A stretch of DNA of 64,000 nucleotides, taken from Mycolicibacterium fortuitum subsp. fortuitum. Lineage in GTDB: Bacteria; Actinomycetota; Actinomycetes; Mycobacteriales; Mycobacteriaceae. The notes beneath the pieces are model-generated. The model did not search any database and was not told where the DNA came from. It saw only the letters and a program-made list of their open reading frames with translations. Shown here one piece after another: positions 1 to 28,535 of this stretch. How positions within the stretch are numbered: position 1 is the first letter of the stretch; every line of letters begins with the position of its first letter. Position numbers and translations under genes: made by a program. The DNA is taken from the NCBI RefSeq assembly GCF_022179545.1, contig NZ_AP025518.1, positions 5,208,001 through 5,272,000 on the forward strand. Direction: 5' to 3'.

Positions 1-1
1 C

Positions 2-874: not shown

Positions 875-911
875 GCGGGAGTTACTTCAGGTACCCAGTA
901 CCCTTGGTACC

Positions 912-3091: not shown

Positions 3092-3137
3092 CGCCACGAC
3101 GATCACAGCCCAAGCGCAGGAAACGGCGCATCCAGAC

Positions 3138-4700: not shown

Positions 4701-4710
4701 GCTGTCATCC

Positions 4711-5343: not shown

Positions 5344-5352
5344 GCGAGCAGC

Positions 5353-6855: not shown

Positions 6856-6877
6856 TTGGTGGGCTGCTCCTCGCAAT

Positions 6878-6912
6878 GATCGGCGCGTGCGCGGGAAGCG
6901 CACGCGCCGATC
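6878..6912. terminator. Perfect 15-bp hairpin between the DUF5336 gene and perM
   Basis: Arms GATCGGCGCGTGCGC (6878-6892) and GCGCACGCGCCGATC (6898-6912) pair perfectly around a five-base loop, GGGAA. It begins three bases after the DUF5336 stop codon and ends before the perM start, in the transcribed direction. There is no U-run, which is common in mycobacterial terminators. It may terminate, attenuate or stabilise the upstream message. Confidence 0.65.
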
Positions 6913-6915
6913 AGC

Positions 6916-7770: not shown

Positions 7771-7904
7771 GACCTCTCCTGTGCTATCAAGCTTCGCGAC
7801 GTGTGTTCACGCAGGCATGAATACCGACCACGTGAGCGATTCGAGCTTCCACGCTAGCGCACCCGGCTGGGTGCCGGGCGCGCGTGCGGGGTGTCAGCGC
7901 GGTC

Positions 7905-9035
7905 TCAAGCTGATACCAGGACGGGTGCGTCGACGGAATCCGTTTCCGCTGCTTCGATCTCGCGAACCAGCGGCAAAACCTTGGCGCCGAAGTACTCGAT
8001 TTCTTCTTGGAAATGCAGGAATCCGCCGAGGATGAGGTCCACGCCGCGTTTGCGGTAGGCGGCGATGCGTTCGGCGATCTGCTCGGGCGTGCCGATCAGC
8101 TGGGTGCGGAAGCCGTCGTTGTACTGCACCAGATCTTCGAAACTTGAATCGGCCCACATGCCCTTCTTGTCGCCCGTGGAGTTGCCCGCCTGCTGCACCG
8201 CGCTGTGGAAGCCTTCGACAGCGGGCTTGTTGGCCTTGGCGATGATCTCTTTGAGGACTTCTTTCGCCTCCGTCTCTGAGTCGCGGGCGATGATGAATCC
8301 GTTGAGGCCGAACTTCACCTCTCTGTCGGCGTTGCGGGCATGATCGCGTACCTCGACTACCTGTTCGGTCAGCCCTTCGAAGTCTTTGCCGTTGGAGAAG
8401 TACCAGTCGGCGTAGCGGCCGCCGTTGCGTCGGGCCGCGGTGGAGTTGCCGCCCTGAAACAGCTCGGGGTTGGGACGATCGGGGGTGTTCAGCGGCTTGG
8501 GTTTGAGGGTGAAATCGTGGATTCGATAGAAGTCGCCGCGGAAATCCACGTCGTCCTCGGTCCAGATCTTGCGCAGCACCTGCAGGAACTCCGCGCTGCG
8601 ACGGTAGCGCTCGTCGTGTTCGAGCCATGGTTCACCCAAGTGGGTGAACTCGTCTTTGAACCAGCCCGAGACGACATTGACGGCGAAGCGGCCATTGCTG
8701 AGGTGGTCGGCGGTGGCACCGAGCTTGGCCAGCACTGCCGGCTGCCACAGCCCCGGATGAACCGCGGCGATTACTTTGAGTCTCTGCGTGGCCAGCAACA
8801 GGGCAAGGCTGAAACTGGTGGATTCATGCTGGTACTCGGCGCCATAACTGGCCTCGTAGCGAACCTGCGACAAGGCATATTCGAAACCGTTGTTCTCCGC
8901 GGTCTGCGCGAGCTTCTTGTTGTACTCGTAGTTCCAGTCGGTGCGCTGCTCGATATCGCTGGTGACCAGGCCGCCGCTGACGTTGGGCACCCAGTAGGCG
9001 AACTTGACGTGGTCGGCGATGCGTTCAGTCGTCAT
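7905..9035 (-). CDS. sfnG: FMN-dependent dimethylsulfone monooxygenase, SfnG-like
   Basis: A luciferase-like monooxygenase of 376 residues. The sequence from KFAYWVPNVSGGLVTSD, with NYEYNKKLAQTAENNGFEYA and NVVSGWFKDEFTHLG, closely follows SfnG. SfnG uses FMNH2 and O2 to convert dimethylsulfone to methanesulfinate, giving access to sulfur. The frame extends back to 9167, overlapping the divergent gene's start; the ATG at 9035 directly precedes the conserved region and was chosen. The divergent region holds a KstR-type box and a second palindrome. No flavin reductase is adjacent, so FMNH2 must come from elsewhere. A related alkanesulfonate monooxygenase is the alternative reading. Confidence 0.85.
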   Translation of the reverse strand: MTTERIADHVKFAYWVPNVSGGLVTSDIEQRTDWNYEYNKKLAQTAENNGFEYALSQVRYEASYGAEYQHESTSFSLALLLATQRLKVIAAVHPGLWQPAVLAKLGATADHLSNGRFAVNVVSGWFKDEFTHLGEPWLEHDERYRRSAEFLQVLRKIWTEDDVDFRGDFYRIHDFTLKPKPLNTPDRPNPELFQGGNSTAARRNGGRYADWYFSNGKDFEGLTEQVVEVRDHARNADREVKFGLNGFIIARDSETEAKEVLKEIIAKANKPAVEGFHSAVQQAGNSTGDKKGMWADSSFEDLVQYNDGFRTQLIGTPEQIAERIAAYRKRGVDLILGGFLHFQEEIEYFGAKVLPLVREIEAAETDSVDAPVLVSA

Positions 9036-9117
9036 GCCGGTGATCCCAGCAAACCGCGGCGGACCCGTCGCGGGTATCGCTCGCGATGAACTTTTCTCGC
9101 CGCCGACACAACTAACG

Positions 9118-9130
9118 AGACGGACCGTCT
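9118..9130. promoter_or_regulatory. Palindrome AGACGGACCGTCT, candidate TetR-type operator
   Basis: A perfect 6-1-6 inverted repeat in the divergent region between the sfnG-like gene and the LLM oxidoreductase gene, 83 bases upstream of the sfnG-like start. Its size and symmetry suit a dimeric repressor, but the regulator is not identifiable from sequence. Confidence 0.4.
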
Positions 9131-9142
9131 TGCGACTGAGAC

Positions 9143-9156
9143 TGAAACACGTTCTA
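9143..9156. promoter_or_regulatory. KstR-type operator TGAAACACGTTCTA
   Basis: Matches every fixed position of the published KstR consensus TnnAACnnGTTnnA and reads as a match on both strands. It ends nine bases before the ATG of the LLM oxidoreductase gene, so it would overlap the promoter of a leaderless or very short-leader transcript. KstR is the TetR-family repressor of mycobacterial sterol catabolism genes. The motif is short, so chance occurrence is possible, but the placement is what an operator would have. Confidence 0.55.
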
Positions 9157-9165
9157 ATTCTGGTC

Positions 9166-10014
9166 ATGGACTATGGGCTCGTTCTCTTCACCAGTGACCG
9201 CGGCATCGCCCCGGCCAAGGCCGCCAAACTCGCCGACGATCACGGCTTCACGACGTTCTACGTCCCCGAGCACACCCACATCCCGATCAAGCGCGAGGCC
9301 GCTCACCCCACCACCGGTGACGAGTCCCTGCCCGACGACCGCTACATGCGCACCCTCGATCCGTGGGTGTCGCTGGGTACCGCCTGCGCGGTGACGTCGC
9401 GGGTCCGGCTGTCGACGGCCGTCGCACTGCCCGTCGAGCACGACCCGATCACGCTGGCCAAATCCATCGCCACCCTCGACCACCTGTCGGGTGGACGCGT
9501 ATCGCTGGGTGTCGGGTTCGGTTGGAACACCGATGAACTCGCCGACCACAACGTTCCCCCGGGCCGGCGCCGCACCATGCTGCGCGAGTACCTGGAAGCC
9601 ATGCGCGCGCTGTGGACCGAGGAAGAAGCCTCCTACGAAGGCGAATTCGTGAACTTCGGACCGTCGTGGGCCTGGCCCAAGCCGGTGCAGTCGCACATCC
9701 CCGTGCTGGTCGGTGCGGCCGGCACCGAGAAGAACTTCAAGTGGATCGCCAAGTCGGCCGACGGCTGGATCACCACGCCGCGCGACTTCAACATCGACGA
9801 GCCGGTCAAGTTGCTGCAGGACACCTGGGCCGCCGCCGGACGTTCCGGTGCACCGCAGATCGTGGCGCTGGACTTCAAGCCGGACCCCGAAAAGCTCGCC
9901 CACTGGCGTGAGTTGGGCGTCACCGAGGTGCTGTTCGGCCTGCCCGACAAATCCGAGGCCGAGGTGTCGGCATACGTCGAGCGGCTCGCGGGCAAGCTGG
10001 CCACGCTGGTCTAG
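9166..10014 (+). CDS. LLM-class F420-dependent oxidoreductase (Rv0953c-like)
   Basis: A luciferase-like TIM-barrel protein of 282 residues, with VPEHTHIP, LSTAVALPVEHDPITLAKSI and GGRVSLGVGFGWNTDEL typical of the F420-dependent LLM subfamily. It sits where Rv0953c does relative to perM and sucCD in M. tuberculosis. Substrate is unknown. The frame extends back to 9004 across the divergent promoter; the ATG at 9166 begins MDYGLVLFTSD, the normal N-terminus of the family. A KstR-type box ends nine bases upstream, which suggests a lipid- or sterol-linked role. A perfect 20-bp hairpin follows the stop. Confidence 0.85.
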   Translation: MDYGLVLFTSDRGIAPAKAAKLADDHGFTTFYVPEHTHIPIKREAAHPTTGDESLPDDRYMRTLDPWVSLGTACAVTSRVRLSTAVALPVEHDPITLAKSIATLDHLSGGRVSLGVGFGWNTDELADHNVPPGRRRTMLREYLEAMRALWTEEEASYEGEFVNFGPSWAWPKPVQSHIPVLVGAAGTEKNFKWIAKSADGWITTPRDFNIDEPVKLLQDTWAAAGRSGAPQIVALDFKPDPEKLAHWRELGVTEVLFGLPDKSEAEVSAYVERLAGKLATLV

Positions 10015-10043
10015 TTGCCGGTGGCTTGCGGCGGTTTACGCGC

Positions 10044-10100
10044 CGAGATCAACGCCATGGTCGCAAAAGTTCGGTTTCGACGACCATGGCGTTGATCTCG
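10044..10100. terminator. Perfect 20-bp inverted repeat between convergent genes
   Basis: Bases 10044-10063 and 10081-10100 are exact reverse complements, with a 17-base loop. It lies between the LLM oxidoreductase stop (10014) and the thiolase-like stop (10108), so it can act on both converging transcripts. Such a long perfect stem could also be a dispersed palindromic repeat; no second copy is evident in this window. Confidence 0.75.
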
Positions 10101-10107
10101 TTGATGG

Positions 10108-11634
10108 CTATGCCAGCGTCGCGGTGTTTCGCTTCTCGCCGGAAGTCACGACGATCGATGCGCCCAGCGGCTCCCCATCGGTGAGCAACCCCAGCAGCGC
10201 CTCGTCCGTGGTCGTGGCCAGGAAGCGGCCGCCGTCGGAATCCAGCCGGCCGATGATGATGCCGGTGCGCGGCGTCCAGTCGTAGCGGACGGTGTAGGTC
10301 TCGATGGTGGCCGGACCGTCGGCCTTTTCCGTGATGGCGACCCGCTGTTGCGCATTGAACTCGTCCTGCAGTGCCGCGCTGCCGTCGGCCACCCAGTCGG
10401 CGGGCCCGGTCGAGTAGATGCCGACCGAATACTTGCTCGCGATACCACCGTTGCCGCCGACCAGTGCGAATTGACCTGGCTTGTCCCGCATTTCATTGAC
10501 AGCCTCGGCGATGCCGTGCATCGAGTAGTTGTTGCCCGGGCCGCCGAAGAAGGGCAGACCACCGGTCAGCGTGAGACCACGCTCGTCGTCGGGCGCCAGT
10601 CCGGTGCCGTCACAGATGTTGAACACCGGGAACGGGAAGCAGCTGTACAGGTCGAACGCCGCGATGTCGTCGAGGGTGATACCCGCGACGCGCAGGGCTT
10701 CGTTCACCGCGATCACCGCGGCTTCGCTGTAGCCCAGCTCAGCGCGCTCCAGCAGCTTGATCTCCTTCATGTCGGCATGCCCGCGCAGGTAAACCCACTT
10801 CTCCTCGGGCACACCGAGTTTGCGGGCGGATTCGACCGACATCAGCAATACCGCGGCACCCTGATTGACCTGATCGCGCGCCACCATCAACCGCGGGTAC
10901 GGGTCGCAGATCATCCGGTTGCTCTCGGTGACGGTGGCCAGCTCCTGCGCCGAACGCTCCACCGGGGACGACGAATACGGGTTCTTGGCGGCCACTTTGG
11001 AGAACGGCGCGAACAACTCGGCCATCGCCTGCCGGTAATCACTCACCGACAGCCCGAGCCTCGCCCGGCGTGCGTTCTCCAGCAGGCCGTATTGCACCGG
11101 AGCGCCGATCAGCCCGTGCTTGACCGTGTACTCGTCGAAGATGCCGTCGTACCCGTAGCCACGGTCCTCCAGCTGTCCCTCGATGGTCTCGGAATGGTCC
11201 GGCTTGTCGTCGCGCTTGGAGAAATACCGCAGCGTCGAGGTGTTCTCCGAGCCGAACAGCAGCACCACATCAGTCTCGCCGGCTGCGATGGCGGCCGAGA
11301 ATTCGGTGACGAGGTGCTGAGGGCTCTGGCCGCCGATCACCTCGAGGATGGCGCGGGCCGGCTCGGCGCCGACATTGCGCGCGACTGAACGCGGGTAGTT
11401 GTTGGATACGCCCAGCGTCGCGGACTGCGGGCCCGAGATCTCGAACTGCCGCGTGCCCGCCACAGTGTCGATGGCGTGCGCCACGGCGGCGATATCAGCG
11501 CCGGTATCGCGCAAGGCTGCCCTGGCAGCCTCGGTGGCCAGCTCGACCGAGGACATCCCGCGGTAGCCGTCGAGGTCGATGCGTTCGGTGAACTGCCCGA
11601 CGCCGACGATGACAGGGGTGCGCGGATCGACCAT
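10108..11634 (-). CDS. Thiolase-like acetyl-CoA acetyltransferase family protein
   Basis: 508 residues with a thiolase fold in the SCP-x/non-decarboxylating branch. The N-terminus (TPVIVGVGQFTERID, SSVELATEAARAALRDTG), the LFGSENTST segment, DLYSCFPFPVFNICDGTG and the GNGGIASKYSVGIYS stretch fit proteins annotated as acetyl-CoA acetyltransferase. A C-terminal region of about 90 residues has an OB-like pattern. The canonical nucleophilic Cys of degradative thiolases is not evident at its usual place, so the catalytic activity is uncertain and a sterol/fatty-acid accessory role is possible. The ATG has AAGGAG six bases upstream. Confidence 0.75.
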   Translation of the reverse strand: MVDPRTPVIVGVGQFTERIDLDGYRGMSSVELATEAARAALRDTGADIAAVAHAIDTVAGTRQFEISGPQSATLGVSNNYPRSVARNVGAEPARAILEVIGGQSPQHLVTEFSAAIAAGETDVVLLFGSENTSTLRYFSKRDDKPDHSETIEGQLEDRGYGYDGIFDEYTVKHGLIGAPVQYGLLENARRARLGLSVSDYRQAMAELFAPFSKVAAKNPYSSSPVERSAQELATVTESNRMICDPYPRLMVARDQVNQGAAVLLMSVESARKLGVPEEKWVYLRGHADMKEIKLLERAELGYSEAAVIAVNEALRVAGITLDDIAAFDLYSCFPFPVFNICDGTGLAPDDERGLTLTGGLPFFGGPGNNYSMHGIAEAVNEMRDKPGQFALVGGNGGIASKYSVGIYSTGPADWVADGSAALQDEFNAQQRVAITEKADGPATIETYTVRYDWTPRTGIIIGRLDSDGGRFLATTTDEALLGLLTDGEPLGASIVVTSGEKRNTATLA

Positions 11635-11737
11635 GACAATCTCCTTGACAGCTGTTAATTCGTGAGGCTAACCGATTGCTGTCTGGAGAGTGAAATCGGT
11701 GCATATCGACCGTCATCAGCCGCATTACCGTTGATGG

Positions 11738-11824
11738 GTGACGCAGCCACTGAGAGTTGATACCGCAGCGCTTCGGAGCGCTGCCCGAGAACTGGCCGGG
11801 CTGAGCGACGAACTGGACCATTGA
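11738..11824 (+). pseudogene. 28-codon ORF, possible remnant of an ESX-associated (EspC-like) protein
   Basis: GTG to TGA frame encoding MTQPLRVDTAALRSAARELA and eight further residues. The start resembles the N-termini of small WXG/EspC-like mycobacterial proteins of about 100 residues, so this may be a truncated leftover or a genuine short peptide. It ends ten bases before the next gene. Evidence is composition and pattern only. Confidence 0.3.
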
Positions 11825-11833
11825 CTCACAATC

Positions 11834-12352
11834 ATGAGTAGAGTGCACCTACCGCGTCGGGTCCTCGCTGTCTCCGCAATGGTCGCAGCCCTCACGGTTG
11901 GCCCTGCAATGCCATCGGCGGAGGCACAGCCACCTGGATTTCCTGATCTCAATGCGTTTACAGAAGCACCGGCCAACCTCGACTTCTCGCGCCCAGACCG
12001 TTGGGCCAACGGATATGCATTTTTTCGCACGCCCGACGGTCTAAGTTGCATGATCGGTGGCGTCCGACGGTGCAGTGGACCTATACCCGGCCTGCCCGTG
12101 GAATACGGCGAATGCGCCGTCGTTCTGCAGACCCACGAAGAGACCAGTCGCTCAGCCCCTTTTAGATTCGAGAAGTCAGCCGAAGGGTGCCTGTCACCCG
12201 CCGACGATCTTCTCAACATCGGTCAGAAGCTAACTCTCACAGCAGACCACACCACCACGTGCGTGGTCGGCGAGGACCGACTAACCGCGTGCATCGACGG
12301 CGACGGAAAGCATGGTTTCGTGCTGCAACCGTCGGGCAGCTGGGTGTTCTGA
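11834..12352 (+). CDS. Secreted six-cysteine protein with C-terminal HGFVLQPSGSW motif (copy 1)
   Basis: 172 residues with a Sec-type signal peptide (RRVLAVSAMVAALTVGPAMP, likely cut after AEA near residue 31). The mature part starts PPGFPDLNAF and carries six Cys in the same order as in two other proteins of this window (12352-12837 and 54242-54736): L-x-C, C-S-G, a mid Cys, G-C, TTC-V-V and ACID, ending HGFVLQPSGSWVF. Three disulfides are likely outside the cell. No family name is known to me and no function can be assigned. Its stop codon overlaps the start of copy 2 (TGATG), so the two are translationally coupled. Confidence 0.75.
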   Translation: MSRVHLPRRVLAVSAMVAALTVGPAMPSAEAQPPGFPDLNAFTEAPANLDFSRPDRWANGYAFFRTPDGLSCMIGGVRRCSGPIPGLPVEYGECAVVLQTHEETSRSAPFRFEKSAEGCLSPADDLLNIGQKLTLTADHTTTCVVGEDRLTACIDGDGKHGFVLQPSGSWVF

Positions 12353-12837
12353 TGCGGCTGGCGCGGTGCTTGGCCACCATATTTCTCGGGCTTACGGCAT
12401 GTTCATCAACACCGGAGTTGCCCGCTCCGCCAGAGGGTTTCCCCGACCTGAACGGATTCACGGCCGTAGACCCCGCTGATTTCAGGTTGGGCGGAAGAGC
12501 ATTTGTCAGTCCAGAGCAGATCCACTGCGTGCTCGACAACGGACCGCGAAAGACGGTCGTCTGTGGTGGCAACATCGAGGGTGTCCCCGACTCGGTAGGC
12601 GGCGCCGGCTGCCCAAGGGTGAGCAAGCCCGAGAATGGGCCAGACGAAGCGCCGTACACCATGTCCCGATCCCAGGGTGCATGTACATCCGCGAGGTTTA
12701 AACCCATCTCCACCGGAAAGAAACTCGTTGGCGACAACAGCACCTGCGTCGTCGGCAAGAAGAACCTGGTGGCCTGTATCGACGCCGACCACAAGCACGG
12801 TTTCGTCTTACAACCCTCTGGCAGCTGGACGTTCTGA
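12352..12837 (+). CDS. Lipoprotein member of the six-cysteine HGFVLQPSGSW family (copy 2)
   Basis: 161 residues starting at the ATG that overlaps the stop of copy 1. The N-terminus has a lipobox, LTAC at residues 14-17, so unlike copy 1 this member should be lipid-anchored. The mature region begins with PEGFPDLNGFTAVDPADF and ends STCVVGKKNLVACID...HGFVLQPSGSWTF, with all six family cysteines kept. Copies 1 and 2 look like a tandem duplication in which one product is released and the other tethered. The last 30 bases overlap the convergent MpaB-type gene. Confidence 0.75.
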   Translation: MRLARCLATIFLGLTACSSTPELPAPPEGFPDLNGFTAVDPADFRLGGRAFVSPEQIHCVLDNGPRKTVVCGGNIEGVPDSVGGAGCPRVSKPENGPDEAPYTMSRSQGACTSARFKPISTGKKLVGDNSTCVVGKKNLVACIDADHKHGFVLQPSGSWTF

Positions 12838-13767
12838 CAGGTTGTAGGCGAACGAACTCTGCTGACGCAGCTTCATCTTCTCAAGGCACTCATGGTGTTT
12901 GCGCGCGTGATAAGCCAGCGGGAAGTAGGTGAGCCGGTCGGGCAGGATCCGGTAGGCGGCGCGGATCACGGCATAGATGCGCTGAAGTTGACGCTCCTCG
13001 GCCTCGCTCCACGTGACACCCAGCTTGGCCCGCAACCGGGGATCGAGCAGCCCGACCACCGACAGATAGTTGAACCGCAGTGCGGGTCGTAGGACCCGAC
13101 GAACCAAGGGATGCAACAGCTTCGGCACTGACGGCGGGAGCGCGACATTACCGGTCTGCATCTCATCGATCAGCTGTAAGGCCTGGGGCGTACCTTCCAC
13201 CTTGTCGATCATGGCCTCGTAGTACTCGGTCATCTCGGCGCGCGTCGACGGATAGCCGTTCATCGGCACGTGCAGCAGGCGCGCGAGCCGGCGGTTGTCC
13301 CGCAGTAGCTCGTCCTTCTCAGCGTCGGTGAAGTCGCGTCCGATCAGCAGCTTGCCGCCGCCTTCGGCGTTGACGATGTAGCCGGTGGCGATCACCCATT
13401 GATATGCCTCGGGATTGAGCGCACTGATCTGCTTTCCGGTCTCGGCGCTCTTCATCGTGATCGGCTGGTGCAGTGCGCGCACCCGGTTTCCCTCGGCGAC
13501 AGCCTCGGTGCCGCCGTAGGTCCAGCGCAGCACCGAGTCGACGCTGCGAATTGCTCGTCCGCCCGGATCCCCGTGGAACGCAGCCGAATAGCGGCCGGTG
13601 ATCTCGGCGATGACGGGGTGCATCGCCTGCATCATGAACGCCGCCCCGTCGACGATCAGGAAGGTCCACCTGCCGGTGTGCTCACCGGTCAGGGAGTCGA
13701 GCGGAACCAGTTCGATGTCGTCCGATTCTTCGATGGCCGGCATTGAGACGTCCGATGTAGCGGTCAT
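12808..13767 (-). CDS. Oxygenase MpaB family protein (DUF2236)
   Basis: 319 residues of the DUF2236 / MpaB-rubber-oxygenase catalytic domain family, which are heme-binding oxygenases where characterised. Seen features: FLIVDGAAFMMQAMHPVIAE, the segment EGNRVRALHQPI, and DPEAYQWVIATG-like region (here NPEAYQWVIATGYIV) with the conserved His/Arg pattern. The substrate is unknown. The frame runs back to 14007 through the divergent TetR gene; the ATG at 13767 has a near-perfect ribosome site AAGGAGGTG six bases upstream. Its divergent TetR neighbour probably regulates it. The 3' end overlaps the convergent lipoprotein gene by 30 bases. Confidence 0.85.
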   Translation of the reverse strand: MTATSDVSMPAIEESDDIELVPLDSLTGEHTGRWTFLIVDGAAFMMQAMHPVIAEITGRYSAAFHGDPGGRAIRSVDSVLRWTYGGTEAVAEGNRVRALHQPITMKSAETGKQISALNPEAYQWVIATGYIVNAEGGGKLLIGRDFTDAEKDELLRDNRRLARLLHVPMNGYPSTRAEMTEYYEAMIDKVEGTPQALQLIDEMQTGNVALPPSVPKLLHPLVRRVLRPALRFNYLSVVGLLDPRLRAKLGVTWSEAEERQLQRIYAVIRAAYRILPDRLTYFPLAYHARKHHECLEKMKLRQQSSFAYNLSERPAARGL

Positions 13768-13803
13768 GTAGCGCACCTCCTTGAGCGTGACGCGACGGTA
13801 ATC

Positions 13804-13817
13804 TGACCAAAAGGTCG
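13804..13817. promoter_or_regulatory. Candidate operator TGACCAAAAGGTCG between mpaB-like and tetR genes
   Basis: An inverted repeat GACC-AAAA-GGTC in the 82-base divergent region. It is a plausible site for the adjacent TetR protein to control both its own gene and the oxygenase gene. The half-sites are short, so support is moderate at best. Confidence 0.35.
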
Positions 13818-13849
13818 CATTCAAGTCGTATTTGAGTTCGGGGGCTGAC

Positions 13850-14473
13850 ATGGAAAACCGCACGTCAACCCAGCGCAAGATCCCCCAGCAGGAGCGTTCT
13901 CGTGAGATGGTCGCAAAAATCATTGCGACTGCGGTGAAGATGCTGAAGAAGACCGATCCCGAGCAGATCACCACCAACGCCATTGCCGCCCGGGCCGGGG
14001 TCAGCAAGGGATCGGTCTACCAGTACTTCGCCAACAAGGAGGAGCTGATCCATGCCGCGATCGAGCAGCTGGCCGCCGAGCAGGCACCGTTGATCGAGGA
14101 CATGCTTCGCTCCGTCACCATGGAACAGCCGCAGGAGGCCATGCAGGCGTCGATCGACATCCTGATCGATTTCACGATCGCCAACCGGAAGTTGATCCGC
14201 TATGTCGCAGACCGGCCCGACTATGCCCGCACGCTGGAAAACGCCTCTGGCCTGAACGCGACGCTGCTGGCGTTGACCACGCTGCACATGGCGCACTACC
14301 GGGACCAGTACCGCCACGAGCTGAGCCCGCGGGCGTTGGCGTGGTTGTTCTTCAACATGGCCGTGGCCACCACCACCCGCTATATCGAAAGCGACGACCC
14401 GATCCAGCTCGACGAGCTGCGCAGCGGATTGAAGTTCGCCTCGGCCGGACTGCTGGCGGCCGGGCGACAGTAG
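13850..14473 (+). CDS. TetR/AcrR family transcriptional regulator
   Basis: 207 residues. The N-terminal HTH (about 10-60) has the TetR pattern: TTNAIAARAGVSKGSVYQYFANKEELIHAAI. The C-terminal domain (LIDFTIANRKLIRYV, LAWLFFNMAVATTTRYI) is a ligand-binding and dimerisation type. The frame extends to a TTG at 13832; the ATG at 13850 is preferred. It is divergent from the MpaB-type oxygenase gene, which is the likely target. An IS30 element begins about 60 bases downstream of its stop. Confidence 0.88.
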   Translation: MENRTSTQRKIPQQERSREMVAKIIATAVKMLKKTDPEQITTNAIAARAGVSKGSVYQYFANKEELIHAAIEQLAAEQAPLIEDMLRSVTMEQPQEAMQASIDILIDFTIANRKLIRYVADRPDYARTLENASGLNATLLALTTLHMAHYRDQYRHELSPRALAWLFFNMAVATTTRYIESDDPIQLDELRSGLKFASAGLLAAGRQ

Positions 14474-14534
14474 CCCGGGGTTCAGCGCCGCCGGTTTCTA
14501 CGCCACGGTCGCCGTCGGCGAGGCGGATTCATAC

Positions 14535-15768
14535 GGTCACTGCAACATCCACTGGTTTGGGAGGTTGCGGTGTTTGATCGTTCGATGCGTCGGGTGTTGT
14601 TTGACCTGGTGTGTGACGGTGTCGCGATGCGTGATGCCGAGCGTCGGGTCGGTGTGTCCAACGGTGCTGGACGGTACTGGTGGTATCAGGCTGGCGGCAT
14701 GACTCTGCTCAAAGGAAGCAAGGGCACTCGCGGTATCGCCTGCCCGGGAGAGCGGACCCGCGAGGGCGGCCCGGGCCACCGGATCAGCTACGACGAACGC
14801 GTGACGATTATGCGGGGCCTGGATCGTGGCCTCAGCCACGCCCAGATCGGGCAGCAATTGGGCCGCGACCGCACCGTCATCTGGCGCGAAGTGCAACGTA
14901 ACCGCAACGCCGACGGGGACTACCACGCCGGGATGGCCCATGCCCGAGCCTGTCAGAAAGCCAAGCGGCCCAAAGCGTTCAAGCTCAACAACACCGGATT
15001 GTGCGCGGCCATCGAAGGGTGGATGGACGATGGGTGGAGCCCGAAGCTGATCGCTGACATGTTGGCCCGCGCTCACCCTGATGACAGGCTGGGCAGGGTG
15101 AGCCACGAAACCATCTACAAGTGCCTCTACGTGCAAGGCCGTGGCCAGCTGCGCGCCGATCTGAACAAGTGCCTGTCGACCAAACGCACCGCCCGTAAAC
15201 CCCGTGGCAGCGAGCGCCGCGGCAGATTCAGCGACGTGATCACCATCAGCCAGCGCCCCGCCACGGTTGAGGACCGTGCCGTGCCCGGGCACTGGGAGGG
15301 AGATCTGATCGTGGGCACCGCCTCTGGTAGCGCGATCGGGACCCTGGTCGAGCGCAGCACCCGATTCACCATCTTGTTGCACCTGCCCAACGATCACACC
15401 GCGGATTCGGTGGCCAAGGCGATGATCGCGGCGATGAATGAGTTACCAGCGCATCTGCGGCGCAGCCTCACCTGGGATCGCGGCTCGGAGATGGCCGGCT
15501 GGTGTGACATCAGCATGGCCCTGCAGGCTCCGGTCTACTTCTGCGATCCGCATTCACCCTGGCAGCGGGGCAGCAACGAGAACACCAACAGGCTGCTGCG
15601 GTTCTGGTTCGAAAAAGGCACCGACCTCAGCCGCTACACCAAGGCCGACCTCAAATCCGTCCAGGACAAGCTCAACACCCGACCCCGGCCCACCCTGGAC
15701 TACGACACCCCCGCCCAACGCCTCGCCGCCCTCATCAACCAAGCCGCATAGCCGATGTTGCGCTAACC
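14535..15768 (+). mobile_element. IS30-family insertion sequence
   Basis: Contains one IS30-type transposase gene. Imperfect terminal inverted repeats: left GGTCACTGCAACATC (14535-14549) against the reverse complement of 15754-15768, GGTTAGCGCAACATC (12 of 15 matching). The two bases flanking each side are AC, consistent with the 2-3 bp target duplication of this family, though two bases can match by chance. It separates a TetR gene from the promoter region of the next TetR/peptidase operon. Confidence 0.7.
14570..15751 (+). CDS. IS30-family transposase
   Basis: 393 residues, full length for the family and uninterrupted. An N-terminal HTH region (ISYDERVTIMRGLDRGLSHA, IGQQLGRDRTVIWREV) precedes the integrase core. 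The DDE triad is visible: Asp near 243 in HWEGDLIVG, Asp near 301 in LTWDRGSE, and Glu near 335 in GSNENTNRLLRFW. The GTG start has GGGAGG five bases upstream. The element looks intact and possibly active. Confidence 0.92.
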   Translation: MFDRSMRRVLFDLVCDGVAMRDAERRVGVSNGAGRYWWYQAGGMTLLKGSKGTRGIACPGERTREGGPGHRISYDERVTIMRGLDRGLSHAQIGQQLGRDRTVIWREVQRNRNADGDYHAGMAHARACQKAKRPKAFKLNNTGLCAAIEGWMDDGWSPKLIADMLARAHPDDRLGRVSHETIYKCLYVQGRGQLRADLNKCLSTKRTARKPRGSERRGRFSDVITISQRPATVEDRAVPGHWEGDLIVGTASGSAIGTLVERSTRFTILLHLPNDHTADSVAKAMIAAMNELPAHLRRSLTWDRGSEMAGWCDISMALQAPVYFCDPHSPWQRGSNENTNRLLRFWFEKGTDLSRYTKADLKSVQDKLNTRPRPTLDYDTPAQRLAALINQAA

Positions 15769-15838
15769 ACTTGACTTTGAGCGAATCAGCGCAACCCAGA
15801 GGTAAAAAGCGGCGCCAACCAGCACACCTTGACCTCGC

Positions 15839-22603: not shown

Positions 22604-23806
22604 CTAGAACTTGACCGGCATCCGCGCCCAGCCGCGAACGCTGGAAGTGTGAGCGCGAAAAGCGTTGGTGTAATCGACTTCCCAGTCCGTCCACCGCTTG
22701 AGCACCTCCTCGAAGGCCACTCGGGCCTCCAGCCTGGCCAGCGCCGATCCGAGGCAGAAGTGCAGGCCCTGACCGAAGCTCAGGTGGCTGCCCGTGCGGT
22801 GGATGTCGAAGCGGTCAGGCTCGGTGAACTTCGACTCGTCGCGGTTGGCCGACCCGTTGAGCAGCAGCATGTAGGAGCCCTCGGGGACAGCCTGCCCGTA
22901 GTGCTCGACGTCCTGCGCGACATACCGGGCCTGCACCGGTGACGGCGGTTCGAAACGCAATGTCTCCTCTACCGCCTTCGGGATCAGGCCAGGGTCGGCG
23001 ACGAGTTCGCGACGTTGGTCCGGATGCTCTCCGAGCAACTGCCCCATGAAACCGATGAGCCGAGCGGTGGTTTCATTGCCGGCACCGGCAATCATCGCGG
23101 TGTAGGCCAACACCTCGGTGCGGGTCAGTGGCCGGGTGGTGCCGTCGGCCTCCTCGATGTGCGCGGTGAGCAGATCGGTCATCAGATCGTCGGAAGGATG
23201 TGACGCCCGCCAATCGATGTATTCGGCGAACATCGCGATGGCGTCGGCGAAGATCATCGGGCTGACCCCGTCGGCACTGGCATCGGCCGAAGCCGCCGTG
23301 ATGGTCTTGTCGTTGCGGTCCCGGATGCTCTGCTGCTCTTCTTCGGGGATGCCCAGCAGATAGCCGATGGTCCGCATCGGCATGAATGCACCGAGGTCGG
23401 CGACGAAGTCCAGGCCGTCCTGTCCGAGAAGGGGATCCAGCGCCTTCGCGCAGAAGTCACGCACGAGATCCTCGACGGCGAGCATGCGGCGCGGGGTAAA
23501 GACCCGTGACAACAGCCGACGGTGCAGATCGTGCAGTGGCGGGTCCTCGAAAAGCAGGATTCCCGGAGGTACCTCGATTCCGCTGAAAAGAATGTCGGCC
23601 GTGGTGCCCCGCCCCGACCGGTAGGCCTGCCAGTTGGGCAGTTCCCTTGCCACGTCGTCCCACCGGCTCAGGGCGTAGAAGTTGTATTTCTCGTTGTAGT
23701 AAAGCGGTGCCTCGCTGCGCATCCGCTTCCAGACCGGGTACGGGTCGTCGTCGATGTCGTAGTCGAACGGGTCGTAGTAGAGCTCCACAGCCTGCTGCGT
23801 CGTCAC
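22604..23806 (-). CDS. Cytochrome P450
   Basis: 400 residues from a GTG with GGGGAAG about six bases upstream; the frame extends to 23881 but the upstream part is not P450-like. Key elements: I-helix oxygen site AGAGNETT, K-helix ETLRFEPP with the E-x-x-R pair, and the heme loop FGQGLHFCLG with the Cys ligand near residue 351. It should be a soluble class I enzyme that needs ferredoxin and reductase. The substrate and CYP family cannot be stated from motifs. The divergent operon encodes a ferredoxin, but of the two-cluster AprB type, not an obvious P450 partner. Confidence 0.92.
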   Translation of the reverse strand: MTTQQAVELYYDPFDYDIDDDPYPVWKRMRSEAPLYYNEKYNFYALSRWDDVARELPNWQAYRSGRGTTADILFSGIEVPPGILLFEDPPLHDLHRRLLSRVFTPRRMLAVEDLVRDFCAKALDPLLGQDGLDFVADLGAFMPMRTIGYLLGIPEEEQQSIRDRNDKTITAASADASADGVSPMIFADAIAMFAEYIDWRASHPSDDLMTDLLTAHIEEADGTTRPLTRTEVLAYTAMIAGAGNETTARLIGFMGQLLGEHPDQRRELVADPGLIPKAVEETLRFEPPSPVQARYVAQDVEHYGQAVPEGSYMLLLNGSANRDESKFTEPDRFDIHRTGSHLSFGQGLHFCLGSALARLEARVAFEEVLKRWTDWEVDYTNAFRAHTSSVRGWARMPVKF

Positions 23807-24001
23807 CGATCCGCTTCCCCATTTCACTGGTACCAAATAGTTGTTCCACCGTACTGTGCGGCTCGCGGGCCGGTCAATCACGGGCTCACAGCATTCTTCC
23901 AGTCACCCTGAGCCAAACGGTCGACCCGAAATCAGTGCCGGGCGTCTACTGAGGCGCATTCGCGTGCGCTCGTACGCATTGACCTCCGGAGGCCCGCTCC
24001 C

Positions 24002-24961
24002 ATGTTCAACCGCCTGTTGCGCACCGCCTTTGCGCTCACCCTCATCAGCGCCGCGATCTCCTGCAGCAGCAATGACAGCAAGGCCGACGGCTACCTGCTC
24101 CGCATCGGCGCCACCTCGGTGACCGGGACTCCGGCGGGCTCGCTGGGCTGGGGCGACAAGCAGGGCATCCTGGCCGAGCAGCTGAAGTCCGCCGGGGTCG
24201 GCAAGATCGAGTACTCGTTCTTCCAGTCCGGCAGCGATGTCGCCTCAGCCCTTTTCGCCGGCGCCATCGACGTCGCCGCCATCGGCGACAACCCCGCACT
24301 ACGGGCCCGCAGTCGCGATCCGAAAGTAGTCCTGCTGTCGTTGGATTCGATAAACGGCGACGCCTGGCTGGTCGGCGCAAAGGGCGGGCCCACCGAGATC
24401 AAGGGTCTGGTCGGCAAGGACATCACCGCTCCGCAGGGCACCATCCGCGACCGCGCTGCCCGTCAGCTCATCGACGCCGCCGGATTGACCGGCCAGATCC
24501 ACGTGCGCGACGTGCCGACGCCCGAGTCCATCGCCGGGCTGAGTTCGGGCAAGATCGACGCGGCCATCCTGACCGGAGCCAGCGCGGCGGAGCTGCAGTC
24601 CAAGGGCTTTCCGATCATCGACAGCCTGTCACGTCACGGCTTCGGCAGCACCGGTACCAACATCGCGCTGCGCTCGTTCACCGACGCCCACCCGGAGTTC
24701 GTCGGCGCCTGGCAGCAGGCGGTCACAACCGTGAACCGTGATATCACCGAGAACTTCGACGCTTATCTCTCCTGGGTCGCGCAAACCGACAACACCGACC
24801 TGGAGTTCGTCCAGAAGTCGACGCGGCCAGAGGAATTCAACACCGAACCGTTCCCGCAGGCCGGACTCGACCAACTCGACGCCGCGTACAAATTCCTCAA
24901 CGCCGACGGATCGTTCGACCACGAGTACTCCGTCCGGGAGTGGGCCGGAGCCAAGTCATGA
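24002..24961 (+). CDS. ABC transporter substrate-binding lipoprotein, sulfonate/taurine (SsuA) type
   Basis: 319 residues with a signal peptide and probable lipobox (LISAAISC near residue 21). The mature part shows the SsuA/TauA pattern: LRIGATSVTGTP, GDVASALFAGAIDVAAIGDNPAL-like segment (here SGSDVASALFAGAIDVAAIG), and LVGKDITAPQGTIRDRAARQ. This class binds sulfonates, sulfate esters or nitrate-like ligands in the periplasm. The ATG has GGAGG about nine bases upstream. It is the first gene of a five-gene operon, with ATGA coupling to the permease gene. The exact ligand is not known. Confidence 0.85.
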   Translation: MFNRLLRTAFALTLISAAISCSSNDSKADGYLLRIGATSVTGTPAGSLGWGDKQGILAEQLKSAGVGKIEYSFFQSGSDVASALFAGAIDVAAIGDNPALRARSRDPKVVLLSLDSINGDAWLVGAKGGPTEIKGLVGKDITAPQGTIRDRAARQLIDAAGLTGQIHVRDVPTPESIAGLSSGKIDAAILTGASAAELQSKGFPIIDSLSRHGFGSTGTNIALRSFTDAHPEFVGAWQQAVTTVNRDITENFDAYLSWVAQTDNTDLEFVQKSTRPEEFNTEPFPQAGLDQLDAAYKFLNADGSFDHEYSVREWAGAKS

Positions 24962-25824
24962 CCACGGCAACCGCTGTGCGGTCGCTGACCGCCGGCCCGG
25001 AACTCGTCGAGGTCGTGGGAGGTCGCACCCGGCGAAAAGGATTGTGGGACCGCCTCCCCCGACCGTTGCGGCGACTTATGAGCCCCGCACTGATCCTCGC
25101 GATCTGGACAGTCGGTTCTACCACCGGGCTTCTCAACACCGATCTGTTCCCGCCTCCGGACCAGGTGGCGGCCACCGCTTGGCGGCTCCTGTCCGATGGC
25201 CAACTTGCCACACACGTCGGCGCCTCGGCGGTCCGGGTGCTCACCGGCACGGTGCTGGGCATTGTCATCGGCGTGGTACTCGCGGTGCTGGCGGGGCTGA
25301 CCCGCACCGGCGAGGACCTGCTCGACTGGACCATGCAGATCCTCAAGGCGGTCCCGAATTTCGCGCTGACCCCGCTGCTGATCATCTGGATGGGCATCGG
25401 TGAGGGGCCGAAGATCGTGTTGATCACCACCGGCGTGGCGATCGCCATCTACATCAACACCTATTCCGGGATCCGTGCTGTGGACCGCCAACTCGTCGAA
25501 ATGGCCCAGACTCTTGAGGCGCCGCGCCACACGTTGATCACCCAGGTGATCCTGCCCGGGGCCATGCCGAATTTTCTCGTGGGTTTGCGCCTAGGACTGT
25601 CCAGCGCATGGCTGAGCCTGATCTTCGCCGAGATGATCAACACCACCCAGGGCATCGGATACCTGATGTCGCGGGCCCAGACCAACCTGCAGTTCGACGT
25701 GTCACTGCTGGTGATCGTGATCTACGCGGTGGCAGGCCTGCTGTCCTACACGCTGGTACGGGTGTTGGAGCGGGCATTGCTGTCCTGGCGCAACGGTTTC
25801 GAGGGTCTCGGAGCGCCGGCATGA
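24958..25824 (+). CDS. ABC transporter permease, sulfonate type (SsuC-like)
   Basis: 288 residues starting at the ATG in an ATGA overlap with the binding-protein gene. About six membrane segments and a BPD_transp_1 pattern, with the ATPase-contacting EAA loop in VEMAQTLEAPRHTLITQVILPGAMP. It forms the channel for the substrate delivered by the upstream lipoprotein. Its own stop overlaps the ATPase start (ATGA). Confidence 0.9.
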   Translation: MTTATAVRSLTAGPELVEVVGGRTRRKGLWDRLPRPLRRLMSPALILAIWTVGSTTGLLNTDLFPPPDQVAATAWRLLSDGQLATHVGASAVRVLTGTVLGIVIGVVLAVLAGLTRTGEDLLDWTMQILKAVPNFALTPLLIIWMGIGEGPKIVLITTGVAIAIYINTYSGIRAVDRQLVEMAQTLEAPRHTLITQVILPGAMPNFLVGLRLGLSSAWLSLIFAEMINTTQGIGYLMSRAQTNLQFDVSLLVIVIYAVAGLLSYTLVRVLERALLSWRNGFEGLGAPA

Positions 25825-26558
25825 GTTCGCCCGTCGTCGAGGTCCGTGGTCTGCGGCGGGCTTTCGGCGATCAGCAGGTGCTCGGGGATCTCGAATTGCA
25901 GATCGCCGACGGCGAATTCGTCGCGATGCTGGGCCGGTCGGGTTCCGGCAAGAGCACCTTGCTGCGCGTGCTGGCCGGTCTCGATGATCAGGTCACCGGA
26001 TCGGTGCGCGTGCCCCGTTCCCGCGCGGTGGTGTTCCAGAACCCACGTCTTCTGCCGTGGCGACGAGCGCTGGCCAACGTGACCTTTGCCCTGCCCGACG
26101 CGGGCCCCGACGCGCCCAGCCGCACTGCACGCGGGCACGCCGCGCTGCAGGAAGTGGGTCTGGCAGAGAAGACTAGGGCTTGGCCTCTGTCACTCTCCGG
26201 CGGTGAGGCGCAAAGGGTTTCACTGGCCCGCGCCCTGGTCCGTGAGCCCGACCTGTTGCTGCTCGACGAGCCGTTCGGTGCACTCGACGCGCTGACCCGG
26301 CTGAAGATGTACGGGCTGCTGCACGATCTGTGGGCGCGCAGACACATGGCCGTTCTGCACGTCACCCACGACGTCGACGAGGCGATCCTGCTGGCCGACC
26401 GGGTGGTAGTGCTCTCCGGTGGGAAGGTTTCGCTCGATGTCCGCGTCGAACTGCCTTTCCCCCGCACCCGCAGCGACGATGGCTTCGACGATCTGCGCCG
26501 TGCACTGCTCGAGGAACTCGGCGTCAGAGAGGAGGTAGGGCATGACCGTTCCCGCTGA
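25821..26558 (+). CDS. ABC transporter ATP-binding protein, sulfonate type (SsuB-like)
   Basis: 245 residues from the ATG in the ATGA overlap with the permease. Walker A GRSGSGKST, Q-loop VFQNPRLLPW, signature LSGGEAQRVSLARAL, Walker B LLLLDEPFGALD and the H-loop His in HVTHDVDEA are all present. Energises uptake by the two upstream proteins. The next gene starts 17 bases before its stop, so expression of transporter and flavoprotein is coupled. Confidence 0.93.
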   Translation: MSSPVVEVRGLRRAFGDQQVLGDLELQIADGEFVAMLGRSGSGKSTLLRVLAGLDDQVTGSVRVPRSRAVVFQNPRLLPWRRALANVTFALPDAGPDAPSRTARGHAALQEVGLAEKTRAWPLSLSGGEAQRVSLARALVREPDLLLLDEPFGALDALTRLKMYGLLHDLWARRHMAVLHVTHDVDEAILLADRVVVLSGGKVSLDVRVELPFPRTRSDDGFDDLRRALLEELGVREEVGHDRSR

Positions 26559-28128
26559 GACGCTCAGCACCGGGGTCCTGGTGATCGGCGGAGGCCCCGC
26601 GGCGACCTGGGCGGCCATCTCGGCCGCCGAGTCCGGAGTCCGGGTCATCCTGGTGGACAAGGGCTACTGCGGCACCAGCGGTGCGACTGCCGCCGGCGGC
26701 AACAATCTGTGGGCGATCGGGCCAGGCCCACGGCGCGAGGATTCGGTACGCGAACGCGAACTGGCGGCCGGCCGGATCACGGACTCCGAGTGGATGTTCC
26801 GGGTACTGCATACCTCGTGGGACCGGCTCGAACAGCTCTCCGAGTGGGGCTACCCCTTCCCCATTGGAGCCGACGGCCGCGAGATGCGCAGCAGCCTGCA
26901 GGGCCCGGAGTACATGCGTCGCATGCGGCGCAAGGCCCAGCGCAGTGGTGTGCTGATCCTCGATCACCACCCCGCACTGGAGCTGACCGCCGACCGCGAC
27001 GGAGTGGTCACCGGGGCCACCGGCATCGCCCGTCAAGACGGCGGGCGACCGTGGCAGATCACCGCGGGCGCCGTCGTGCTGGCCACCGGCGGAACCGCGT
27101 TCCTGTCCGGCACCTTCGGCACCAACGTCGATACCGGTGAAGGTCTGCTCATGGCGGCCGAACACGGTGCGCATCTGTCGGGAATGGAGTTCTGCACCGC
27201 CTACGCGCTGGCGCCCGAGTGGGGCGTGCACACCAAAGGCCGCATGCTGCAGTGGGGCAGCTTCTATGACGAGCACGGCCGGCCGTTCACCACCCAGCGT
27301 GGGCTGAGTGGACGCCAGGATGCGCAGCGGGCGCTGACCCGCGGCGAGCGGGTGTTCACCCGGTTGGACCGCGCCCCCGAACACATCCGTCAGACCATGC
27401 GCGATGCCCAGCCGAACTACTTCCTGCCGCTGGACAAGGCCGGTATCGACCCGTTCACCACCGCCTACCCGGTCCGGATGGTCTACGAGGGATCGGTGCG
27501 CGGTACCGGCGGCCTGCGGCTGATCGGTCCCGATTGCGCGACAACAGTTCCCGGACTGTATGCGGCAGGTGACGCAGCGACCCGCGAACTCATCACCGGC
27601 TCGCTGTCGGGTGGCGGCAGCCGAAACGGCTCGTGGGCGATCGCCTCGGGCACCTTCGCCGGCCGGGGTGCGGCGGAGTTCAGCCGCACCCGACGGGTCC
27701 CCGCGGCGTCGGCGGCGCCGACTCCCCGGCTGTCACGTGCCGGCGCTCCGACGGTGGAGGAAGTGGTGGGCGTGGTCCAGTCCCACACCTTGCCGCCACA
27801 GCGCAGCTTTCTGAAATCAGCTGAGCGGCTTCGCGAATCGGCTGAAGCTCTGGAAGCGGTGTGGCGTGACATCGCCGACGGCCTGGCCCCGGTCCCGGCG
27901 CGCGAGGTCTACAAGCAACGTCAGGCGGTGGCCATGGTCGCCGCGGCGCGCTGGATCACCGCCGCATCGCTGGCCCGGCCGGAGACGCGCGGCCTGCACC
28001 GGCGCGAAGATCTGCCCGAAACAGATCACCGGTTCGAGCACCGCATCCTGGTCGGCGGCCTCGACAAGGTCTGGACTGCACCCGATCCCGTTGCTCCACA
28101 GCTCATCTCCTCGGAGGCGGTGGCGTGA
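26542..28128 (+). CDS. FAD-dependent oxidoreductase, AprA / fumarate-reductase flavoprotein type
   Basis: 528 residues. The FAD-binding Rossmann motif is VLVIGGGPAATWAAISAAE with GTSGATAAGGNNLWA following, typical of the succinate dehydrogenase / fumarate reductase / APS reductase alpha-subunit superfamily. A second FAD contact is GLYAAGDAATRELITGSLSGGG near residues 340-360. It overlaps the ABC ATPase by 17 bases, and the ferredoxin gene begins in a GTGA overlap at its end. This arrangement of flavoprotein and two-cluster ferredoxin parallels AprA-AprB. Together with the sulfonate-type transporter it suggests redox processing of an imported sulfur compound; the reaction is not known. Confidence 0.8.
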   Translation: MTVPAETLSTGVLVIGGGPAATWAAISAAESGVRVILVDKGYCGTSGATAAGGNNLWAIGPGPRREDSVRERELAAGRITDSEWMFRVLHTSWDRLEQLSEWGYPFPIGADGREMRSSLQGPEYMRRMRRKAQRSGVLILDHHPALELTADRDGVVTGATGIARQDGGRPWQITAGAVVLATGGTAFLSGTFGTNVDTGEGLLMAAEHGAHLSGMEFCTAYALAPEWGVHTKGRMLQWGSFYDEHGRPFTTQRGLSGRQDAQRALTRGERVFTRLDRAPEHIRQTMRDAQPNYFLPLDKAGIDPFTTAYPVRMVYEGSVRGTGGLRLIGPDCATTVPGLYAAGDAATRELITGSLSGGGSRNGSWAIASGTFAGRGAAEFSRTRRVPAASAAPTPRLSRAGAPTVEEVVGVVQSHTLPPQRSFLKSAERLRESAEALEAVWRDIADGLAPVPAREVYKQRQAVAMVAAARWITAASLARPETRGLHRREDLPETDHRFEHRILVGGLDKVWTAPDPVAPQLISSEAVA

Positions 28129-28535
28129 TCGAGATCGTCAGCGCGGCCGCTTGCGTCAAGTGCGACGTCTGCGTCAAGGTCTGTCCCACTGATGTCTTCG
28201 ACCGCGGCGTCGACGGAGTGCCCGTCATCGCCCGCCAATCCGACTGCCAGACCTGCTTCATGTGCGAGGCCTACTGCCCCACCGATGCGCTCTACGTTTC
28301 GCCGGTGTCCGTTCCCGTTGGCGTCGGCAGCCCGCATGCGTCCGAGGAAGCGGTGCGCAGTTCGGGTCTGCTGGGTGGGTACCGCGAGATGGTCGGCTGG
28401 GGTCGGGGCCGCACGCCGGGATCTCGTTTGGACCAGAATCCCGTGCTGACCTCGATTCCCCCTTTGGCCGAGCCGCGCCTGGGCACTCCAGCCCCGCTGG
28501 CCGACGGGCCCTGGAATCATCAGGGGCATGCCTGA
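28125..28535 (+). CDS. Two-cluster [4Fe-4S] ferredoxin, AprB-like, partner of the flavoprotein
   Basis: 136 residues. Two complete C-x2-C-x2-C-x3-C-P motifs: Cys 10, 13, 16, 20 (CVKCDVCVKVCP) and Cys 41, 44, 47, 51 (CQTCFMCEAYCP). A long C-terminal tail (GYREMVGWGRGR and beyond) extends past the clusters, as in AprB-like subunits, and may wrap around the flavoprotein. The GTG start overlaps the flavoprotein stop (GTGA), supporting a fixed complex. The role is electron transfer to or from the FAD subunit. Confidence 0.88.
   Translation: MIEIVSAAACVKCDVCVKVCPTDVFDRGVDGVPVIARQSDCQTCFMCEAYCPTDALYVSPVSVPVGVGSPHASEEAVRSSGLLGGYREMVGWGRGRTPGSRLDQNPVLTSIPPLAEPRLGTPAPLADGPWNHQGHA

What the first reader, a model, noticed from the sequence alone, without database searches (positions are those of the whole stretch)
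24002..28535. Operon of a sulfonate-type ABC transporter with an AprA-like flavoprotein and AprB-like two-cluster ferredoxin
Seen: five genes on one strand, each junction overlapping (ATGA, ATGA, a 17-base overlap, GTGA). They encode a complete SsuA-SsuC-SsuB type importer, a fumarate-reductase/APS-reductase-alpha-like FAD protein, and a 136-residue protein with two C-x2-C-x2-C-x3-C-P clusters and a long C-terminal tail. Known: AprAB and SDH/fumarate reductase flavoproteins act with iron-sulfur partners; SsuABC imports organosulfonates. Inference: the operon imports a sulfur compound and processes it by a redox step different from the usual FMNH2 monooxygenase route. An SfnG-like sulfone monooxygenase lies about 15 kb away. 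I know of no described function for this combination in mycobacteria.
Basis: partly seen in the sequence, partly recalled or inferred. Interest (0 to 1): 0.78.

Follow-up and report, generated by a model that had tools for sequence, protein, structure and literature searches.

The report
Mycobacterial AsfAB operon with own importer
A mycobacterium carries a five-gene operon that pairs a sulfonate-type importer with relatives of AsfA/AsfB, a flavoprotein and ferredoxin already described in other bacteria for taking sulfur from aromatic sulfonates, so the genes are real and conserved but largely of a known kind.

Summary
The five-gene observation is correct: SsuA-, SsuC- and SsuB-like importer genes, a complex II/AprA-fold flavoprotein and a two-cluster ferredoxin, all junctions overlapping. 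The claim that no function is known does not hold for the pair: it is AsfA/AsfB, described for aromatic-sulfonate desulfurization in Pseudomonas putida S-313 (review PMC4267179) and named in Cupriavidus metallidurans (PMC2864759). AsfA is 49% identical to the CH34 copy over 513 columns, AsfB 46% over 112.

The five-gene unit is conserved in close relatives (26 of 27 with all importer types, 26 of 27 with AsfB; both misses are contig ends). The window's AsfA lies in a clade apart from the named AsfA. Its loci almost never carry a linked FMNH2-type monooxygenase (1 of 27), unlike other AsfAB genes (27 of 53). All 32 AsfA-positive genomes examined in the genus hold an SsuD-like protein, against 108 of 166 AsfA-negative, but none of the 32 passes the SsuD cut-off.

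Best reading: sulfur scavenging from an organosulfonate, with AsfAB as redox module. AprAB-type chemistry is not supported. Whether AsfA passes electrons or itself acts on the sulfonate remains open.

The parts
24002..24961 (+). SsuA/NMT1-like substrate-binding protein (319 aa), possibly a lipoprotein
   Evidence: PF09084 27.9 bits; TIGR01728 SsuA family 76.7 bits, below its cut-off 163.5; a lipobox-like Cys near residue 21 read by eye, not tested
24958..25824 (+). SsuC-like ABC permease (288 aa)
   Evidence: PF00528 101 bits; best curated model SsuC 205.9 bits, cut-off 347
25821..26558 (+). SsuB-like ABC ATPase (245 aa)
   Evidence: PF00005 94.2 bits; best curated model aliphatic-sulfonate ATPase 229.3 bits, cut-off 395
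26542..28128 (+). AsfA-like flavoprotein (528 aa), complex II/AprA fold
28125..28535 (+). AsfB-like 2[4Fe-4S] ferredoxin with a conserved G-x-Y-R-x3-G-W tail motif (136 aa)
   Evidence: 46% identical (52/112) to the CH34 AsfB; invariant Cys and G84, Y86, R87, G91, W92 in 17 rows

Best explanation
It is a sulfur-scavenging Asf operon. The SsuA-like protein captures an organosulfonate (aromatic or otherwise poor for plain SsuD: inferred from AsfA genetics elsewhere), SsuC/SsuB import it, and AsfA with AsfB carry out a redox step needed for desulfonation. Sulfite is probably released with the help of an FMNH2-dependent SsuD-like monooxygenase encoded elsewhere (2,597,379-2,598,458 of this genome) and then assimilated. 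Shown here: the genes, their linkage, the homology to AsfA/AsfB, the predicted complex II-type fold and the co-occurrence with SsuD-like genes. Inferred: substrate class, electron flow, dependence on the SsuD-like protein, regulation by sulfur.
For: AsfA and AsfB 49% and 46% identical to the CH34 pair; the held record of CH34 chromosome 2 has one AsfA match and the genome paper names AsfA/AsfB Rmet_4334/5 on that replicon. The review says an asfA transposon mutant of P. putida S-313 lost aromatic but not aliphatic sulfonate use, and that the asf cluster holds a binding protein, an ABC transporter, reductase/ferredoxin and a LysR regulator. Five-gene unit conserved: 26 of 27 and 26 of 27. SsuD-like match (TIGR03565, E<=1e-115) in 32 of 32 AsfA-positive against 108 of 166 AsfA-negative genus genomes, Fisher p 8e-6. 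In one of 27 type-1 loci an SsuD-like and an NtaA/DmoA-type monooxygenase lie a few kb upstream. All 8 non-actinobacterial genomes among the 27 AsfA-positive genomes pass the SsuD cut-off.
Against: The window's AsfA is in a clade apart from the named AsfA, and no tested member of that clade was found. No LysR gene in the operon or the six genes around it. The importer misses curated sulfonate cut-offs. Only 1 of 27 type-1 loci has a luciferase-like monooxygenase within 6 kb. The SsuD co-occurrence is confounded by phylogeny and genome size and was not corrected; only 2 of 198 genus genomes pass the SsuD cut-off and neither has AsfA; the own-genome SsuD-like protein scores 440 of 518 bits. AsfA has the fold of enzymes that act on a small substrate at the flavin, which fits poorly with a mere electron carrier.
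Confidence: 0.6

Rival explanations
1. AsfAB is itself the desulfonating enzyme: AsfB feeds electrons to the AsfA flavin, which acts directly on the imported sulfonate without an oxygenase.
For: Predicted complex II/AprA fold over the whole length; residues invariant in 36 aligned AsfA rows, such as QGPEY 120-124, Y221, T231-K232, E316 and R320, differ from FrdA, whose His355 and Arg390 positions fall on E316 and a glycine (alignment read by eye, residue roles recalled); 15 of 53 non-type-1 AsfAB genes have all three importer types but no luciferase-like, TauD or P450 hit within 6 kb, and 26 of 27 type-1 loci have no luciferase-like hit there; AsfAB-SBP-AsfAB tandems in Actinomadura and Paenibacillus.
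Against: 27 of 53 other AsfAB genes lie by luciferase-like monooxygenases; 32 of 32 AsfA-positive genus genomes have an SsuD-like protein. The review treats asf as complementing ssu in P. putida.
Confidence: 0.2
2. The operon imports and transforms a non-sulfonate compound (to my knowledge the transporter family also carries nitrate, taurine and thiamine precursors); AsfAB is a general reductase.
For: Importer proteins miss curated sulfonate cut-offs. In two other genera of the family the sister AsfAB sits by an alpha/beta hydrolase, 6 loci by homology, 3 of them checked by Pfam, with no luciferase-like hit within 6 kb. In Paracoccus and Shinella it sits by a binding protein, two permeases and an ATPase, with no monooxygenase annotated in the stretch shown.
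Against: Many AsfAB loci carry SsuD- or NtaA-type monooxygenases, an SsuA-family protein above cut-off (L053) or SfnB-type genes.
Confidence: 0.15
3. AprAB-like chemistry: interconversion of sulfite and adenylylsulfate.
For: Same fold superfamily and a ferredoxin partner; methanogen PAPS reductase matches on both subunits (alpha 74 bits, beta 44 bits).
Against: APS reductase alpha model scores 45 of a 557-bit cut-off; the fold match to AprA is weaker than to FrdA or L-aspartate oxidase; no AprB chain among the 60 of 137 AsfB matches shown.
Confidence: 0.05

Closest known systems
AsfA/AsfB of the asf cluster (P. putida S-313 asfRABC; C. metallidurans Rmet_4334/5)
   Same: Homologous flavoprotein and ferredoxin over nearly full length, adjacent genes; linked to a binding protein and ABC transporter according to the review
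   Different: Separate clade; no LysR regulator in or beside the operon; importer genes directly upstream with overlapping junctions
SsuABC/TauABC importers
   Same: Type of the three proteins; best curated models are SsuC, sulfonate ATPase and SsuA family
   Different: All below curated cut-offs; no SsuD or SsuE in the operon
Complex II family flavoproteins: FrdA, SdhA, L-aspartate oxidase, AprA, methanogen PAPS reductase
   Different: About 20% identity; FrdA active-site His and Arg positions not kept, FAD-linking His aligned with a serine (read by eye, roles recalled)
Second AsfAB type in mycobacteria, near luciferase-like monooxygenases
   Same: AsfAB pair, in part with an ABC importer nearby
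   Different: 45-50% identical; 12 of 12 loci examined (of 13 copies listed) have a luciferase-like hit within 6 kb, type 1 only 1 of 27

Membership tests
AsfA/AsfB | AsfA-homologous flavoprotein over full length | tested here: met
   49% over 513 columns to the CH34 AsfA
AsfA/AsfB | AsfB-type dicluster ferredoxin encoded directly downstream | tested here: met
   GTGA junction; 46% over 112 columns; 67 of 71 AsfA copies, the window among them, had AsfB adjacent
AsfA/AsfB | Linked binding protein and ABC transporter | tested here: met
   24002-26558; feature as stated in the review
Full asfRABC cluster | LysR-type regulator AsfR in the cluster | tested here: not met
   No LysR domain in the five genes or in six neighbours between 20833 and 31662. 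So the pair is filed as AsfA/AsfB, not the whole as an asfRABC cluster. In the CH34 locus three non-Asf ORFs tested were not LysR either; its AsfR is known only from the paper
AsfA/AsfB | Same clade as a named AsfA | tested here: not met
   Quick ML tree, 62 rows: window in a 27-row clade, CH34 AsfA among the other 35; SH-aLRT 95, midpoint root, long branches. P. putida S-313 AsfA itself was not in hand, so the clade of the experimentally tested protein is unknown here. Clade position lowers the transfer of function, not the homology
AsfA/AsfB | Required for aromatic sulfonate use, active under sulfate limitation | not testable with these tools
   Needs mutants and expression data
AprAB (APS reductase) | Passes the curated AprA model | tested here: not met
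   NF005331 45.4 of 557 bits
AprAB (APS reductase) | Complex II-type flavoprotein fold | tested here: met
SsuABC sulfonate importer | Passes curated SsuA/SsuB/SsuC models | tested here: not met
   76.7 of 163.5, 229.3 of 395, 205.9 of 347 bits
SsuD FMNH2 route | SsuD in the operon | tested here: not met
   None of the five genes; an SsuD-like protein elsewhere, 440 of 518 bits

The most novel reading that the evidence does not exclude
The AsfAB clade of the window is a self-sufficient, flavin-dependent desulfonating enzyme of the complex II family with its own importer, acting at an active site unlike FrdA or AprA; AsfA's stated role as an electron-transfer reductase would then be wrong, at least for this clade.
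Probability: 0.2. Interest if true: 0.72.

Novelty: new member of a known kind. Interest (0 to 1): 0.36.

Why it matters
asfA is used as a marker gene for aromatic-sulfonate mobilisation in soil, yet in the passages I read its chemistry is stated only as electron transfer during oxygenation. The survey shows that AsfAB is common among relatives of the window (84 of 301 genomes of its family), occurs in two kinds in mycobacteria, and in one kind travels with an importer but without a linked oxygenase. A protein named from M. smegmatis is 81% identical (its strain and neighbourhood were not examined), so the open question of what AsfAB does could be tested in a tractable host.

Tried and rejected
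AprB-like origin of the ferredoxin: the AsfB profile finds polyferredoxins and other diclusters first, with the PAPS reductase beta subunit seventh; no AprB chain is among the 60 of 137 matches shown. The AsfB model was poor (pLDDT 59), so no fold search was run on it. No model of the AsfA-AsfB complex was made: the tool folds one chain.

P450 as partner: the divergent P450 beside the window operon is found in 10 of 27 type-1 relatives only, so I do not count it as part of the unit. RNA elements: no Rfam family in the window at gathering threshold. AsfB in phage records: no match.

Literature: searches showed no paper on AsfAB in mycobacteria in the listings, which were capped. The library lacks most subscription papers, and the original 1999 paper was not searched for by name, so absence in print is not shown. 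Passages seen of PMC4267179, PMC2864759 and PMC9694294 (12 of 21 places, its one mention of 'mycobacter' not among those I noted); all others only as listings, including PMC8727900 on Mycolicibacterium, which mentions ssuABC and was not read. An anaerobe test (AsfA in strict anaerobes would argue against an oxygenase role) was considered but not done.

Rows dropped: the tree left out 17 locus ids (near-identical or partial). The short loci L001-L003 and L042-L052 were not in that count. Three AsfA copies without AsfB (L066, L100, L101) are outside the 53. The 27 type-1 relatives include several strains of one species. One search aligned 36 hand-picked rows. Neighbours were found by tblastn with chosen reference proteins, so a miss is not proof of absence. 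The Fisher test used hand counts that later confirmed; its rows are not independent.
Full report
What is there. They are an NMT1/SsuA-like binding protein, an SsuC-like permease, an SsuB-like ATPase, an FAD_binding_2 flavoprotein and a 4Fe-4S dicluster protein. By NCBI's curated models the importer is nearest to sulfonate transporters, but all three proteins fall below the cut-offs. The genome is one contig of 6,406,072 bases with the window at 5,208,001-5,272,000; the nearest named AsfA relatives are from Mycolicibacterium peregrinum, septicum and senegalense.

The pair is AsfA/AsfB. The recollection of asfAB as an aromatic desulfonation gene pair was mine; I then tested it. A search of papers found a review (passages read, PMC4267179) that describes the asf cluster of Pseudomonas putida S-313: a binding protein, an ABC transporter, a reductase/ferredoxin system and a LysR regulator, with an asfA transposon mutant that lost aromatic but kept aliphatic sulfonate use. 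The genome paper of Cupriavidus metallidurans CH34 names AsfA/AsfB as Rmet_4334/5 and places asfRAB on its second chromosome (PMC2864759, passages). The held record of that replicon has a single place matching the window flavoprotein; its annotation is not in the collection, so the identity with Rmet_4334 rests on uniqueness. Direct comparison gives 250/513 identities for AsfA and 52/112 for AsfB. So the statement that no function is described for this combination does not hold at the level of the pair, and the published cluster also carries a transporter. The P. putida protein itself was not in hand.

Conservation. A first scan found AsfB directly beside AsfA in 67 of 71 AsfA copies. A fuller count used 27 close relatives (76-93% identical, 'type 1'): all three importer types lie within 6 kb in 26 of 27, and AsfB in 26 of 27; the two misses, L023 and L016, are cut by contig ends. 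Of 57 other matching rows, 54 had AsfB; counting the split L082 gene once gives 53 genes. Of these, 43 have a binding protein, 44 at least one ABC component and 36 all three types within 6 kb. Three AsfA copies without AsfB (L066, L100, L101) were set aside.

Distribution. Within the genus, 32 of 198 genomes have AsfA at E<=1e-60: by identity 21 hold type 1 and 12 a second type at 47-50%, one genome having both (my tally from that listing). In the family 84 of 301 genomes match, and in an even draw of the phylum 4 of 396. Plasmid records with a match number 60; the taxonomy lines I opened cover Alpha- and Betaproteobacteria, Actinomycetota, Bacillota and Cyanobacteriota.

Clade. A quick maximum-likelihood tree of 62 rows puts the window in a set of 27 rows, including the second copies of Actinomadura and two Rhodococcus proteins (P0115, P0116), apart from the 35 rows that hold the Cupriavidus AsfA and the second mycobacterial type (SH-aLRT 95; midpoint root; several long branches). 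Every row of the 27 with a known source is actinobacterial; three (P0090, P0103, P0119) come from sources without an organism name. The named function is therefore carried over across a deep split inside the family.

Linked monooxygenases. Twelve of twelve second-type mycobacterial loci examined (of 13 copies listed) have a luciferase-like hit within 6 kb; four of these proteins were checked by Pfam and are Bac_luciferase, and one (L053) is of the NtaA/DmoA kind by NCBIfam, as are those beside AsfAB in Nostoc and Sphingobium. Over all non-type-1 genes the figure is 27 of 53; for type 1 it is 1 of 27, or 1 of 23 with full flanks. The exception, L070/L085, has an SsuD-like and an NtaA/DmoA-type gene a few kb upstream. 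As background, this genome has 68 matches to the luciferase-like family, so such a neighbour within 6 kb on either side is not rare by chance, roughly one in seven.

SsuD elsewhere in the genome. An SsuD-like match (E<=1e-115) is present in all 32 AsfA-positive genus genomes and in 108 of 166 AsfA-negative ones (Fisher p 8e-6). Shared ancestry and genome size are not corrected for. Against it: only 2 of 198 genus genomes pass the curated SsuD cut-off, and neither has AsfA. Among 27 AsfA-positive genomes of wider origin, 8 pass the cut-off, and these are the eight non-actinobacterial ones.

Against a simple oxygenase partnership: 15 of the 53 genes lie in loci with all three importer types and no luciferase-like, TauD or P450 hit within 6 kb. 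Paracoccus and Shinella show plain AsfA-AsfB-SBP-permease-permease-ATPase runs, and Haematobacter the same run next to a P450 system. Paenibacillus and Actinomadura show two AsfAB pairs around one binding protein.

Regulation. No LysR domain was found in the five genes or the six neighbours tested between 20833 and 31662, so the AsfR of the published cluster has no counterpart beside this operon.

Reading. The most likely function is sulfur scavenging from an organosulfonate, with AsfAB as the redox module and an SsuD-like monooxygenase encoded elsewhere. The main uncertainty is whether AsfA passes electrons or acts on the sulfonate itself; the bold form of the latter is given as the novel case. 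The finding is real and conserved, but it belongs to a described kind; hence moderate interest.

Noticed in passing
window 1-15782; genome 5058885-5223782: Direct tandem duplication with an 81.8-kb period: window 1-15782 is 99.987% identical to 5126183-5141963, the other stretches compared are 100%, and a 1261-base segment recurs at 5058885, 5140703 and 5222522; it holds a transposase ORF (window 14570-15751, HTH_38 plus rve; IS30-like to my knowledge). Either a real IS-bounded duplication or an assembly artefact; the SfnG gene lies inside it and so occurs twice.
   Followed up: partly
window 7905-9167: SfnG dimethylsulfone monooxygenase, 637.5 bits against cut-off 383, next to another luciferase-like oxidoreductase at 9004-10014.
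   Followed up: partly
L031, L033, L040; L077: Two AsfAB pairs flanking one substrate-binding protein in Actinomadura and in Paenibacillus cellulositrophicus; in Actinomadura (L031, L033 tested) the two pairs belong to different AsfA clades.
   Followed up: partly
L086, L092, L093, L094, L096, L097: In two other genera of the family a sister AsfAB pair lies next to an Abhydrolase_3-type protein, in three of the six also near a separate NMT1-type importer; substrate unknown.
   Followed up: partly
window 22604-23881: Cytochrome P450 divergent from the operon; a P450 hit lies within 6 kb of AsfA in 10 of 27 type-1 relatives.
   Followed up: partly
genome 6406072 bases: 68 luciferase-like (PF00296) matches in this genome; related mycobacteria also hold dozens of such genes by the SsuD model (32-51 matches in those).
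   Followed up: no
L066, L100, L101: AsfA-like flavoproteins (41-47%) without a recognisable AsfB nearby; possibly another subfamily.
   Followed up: no
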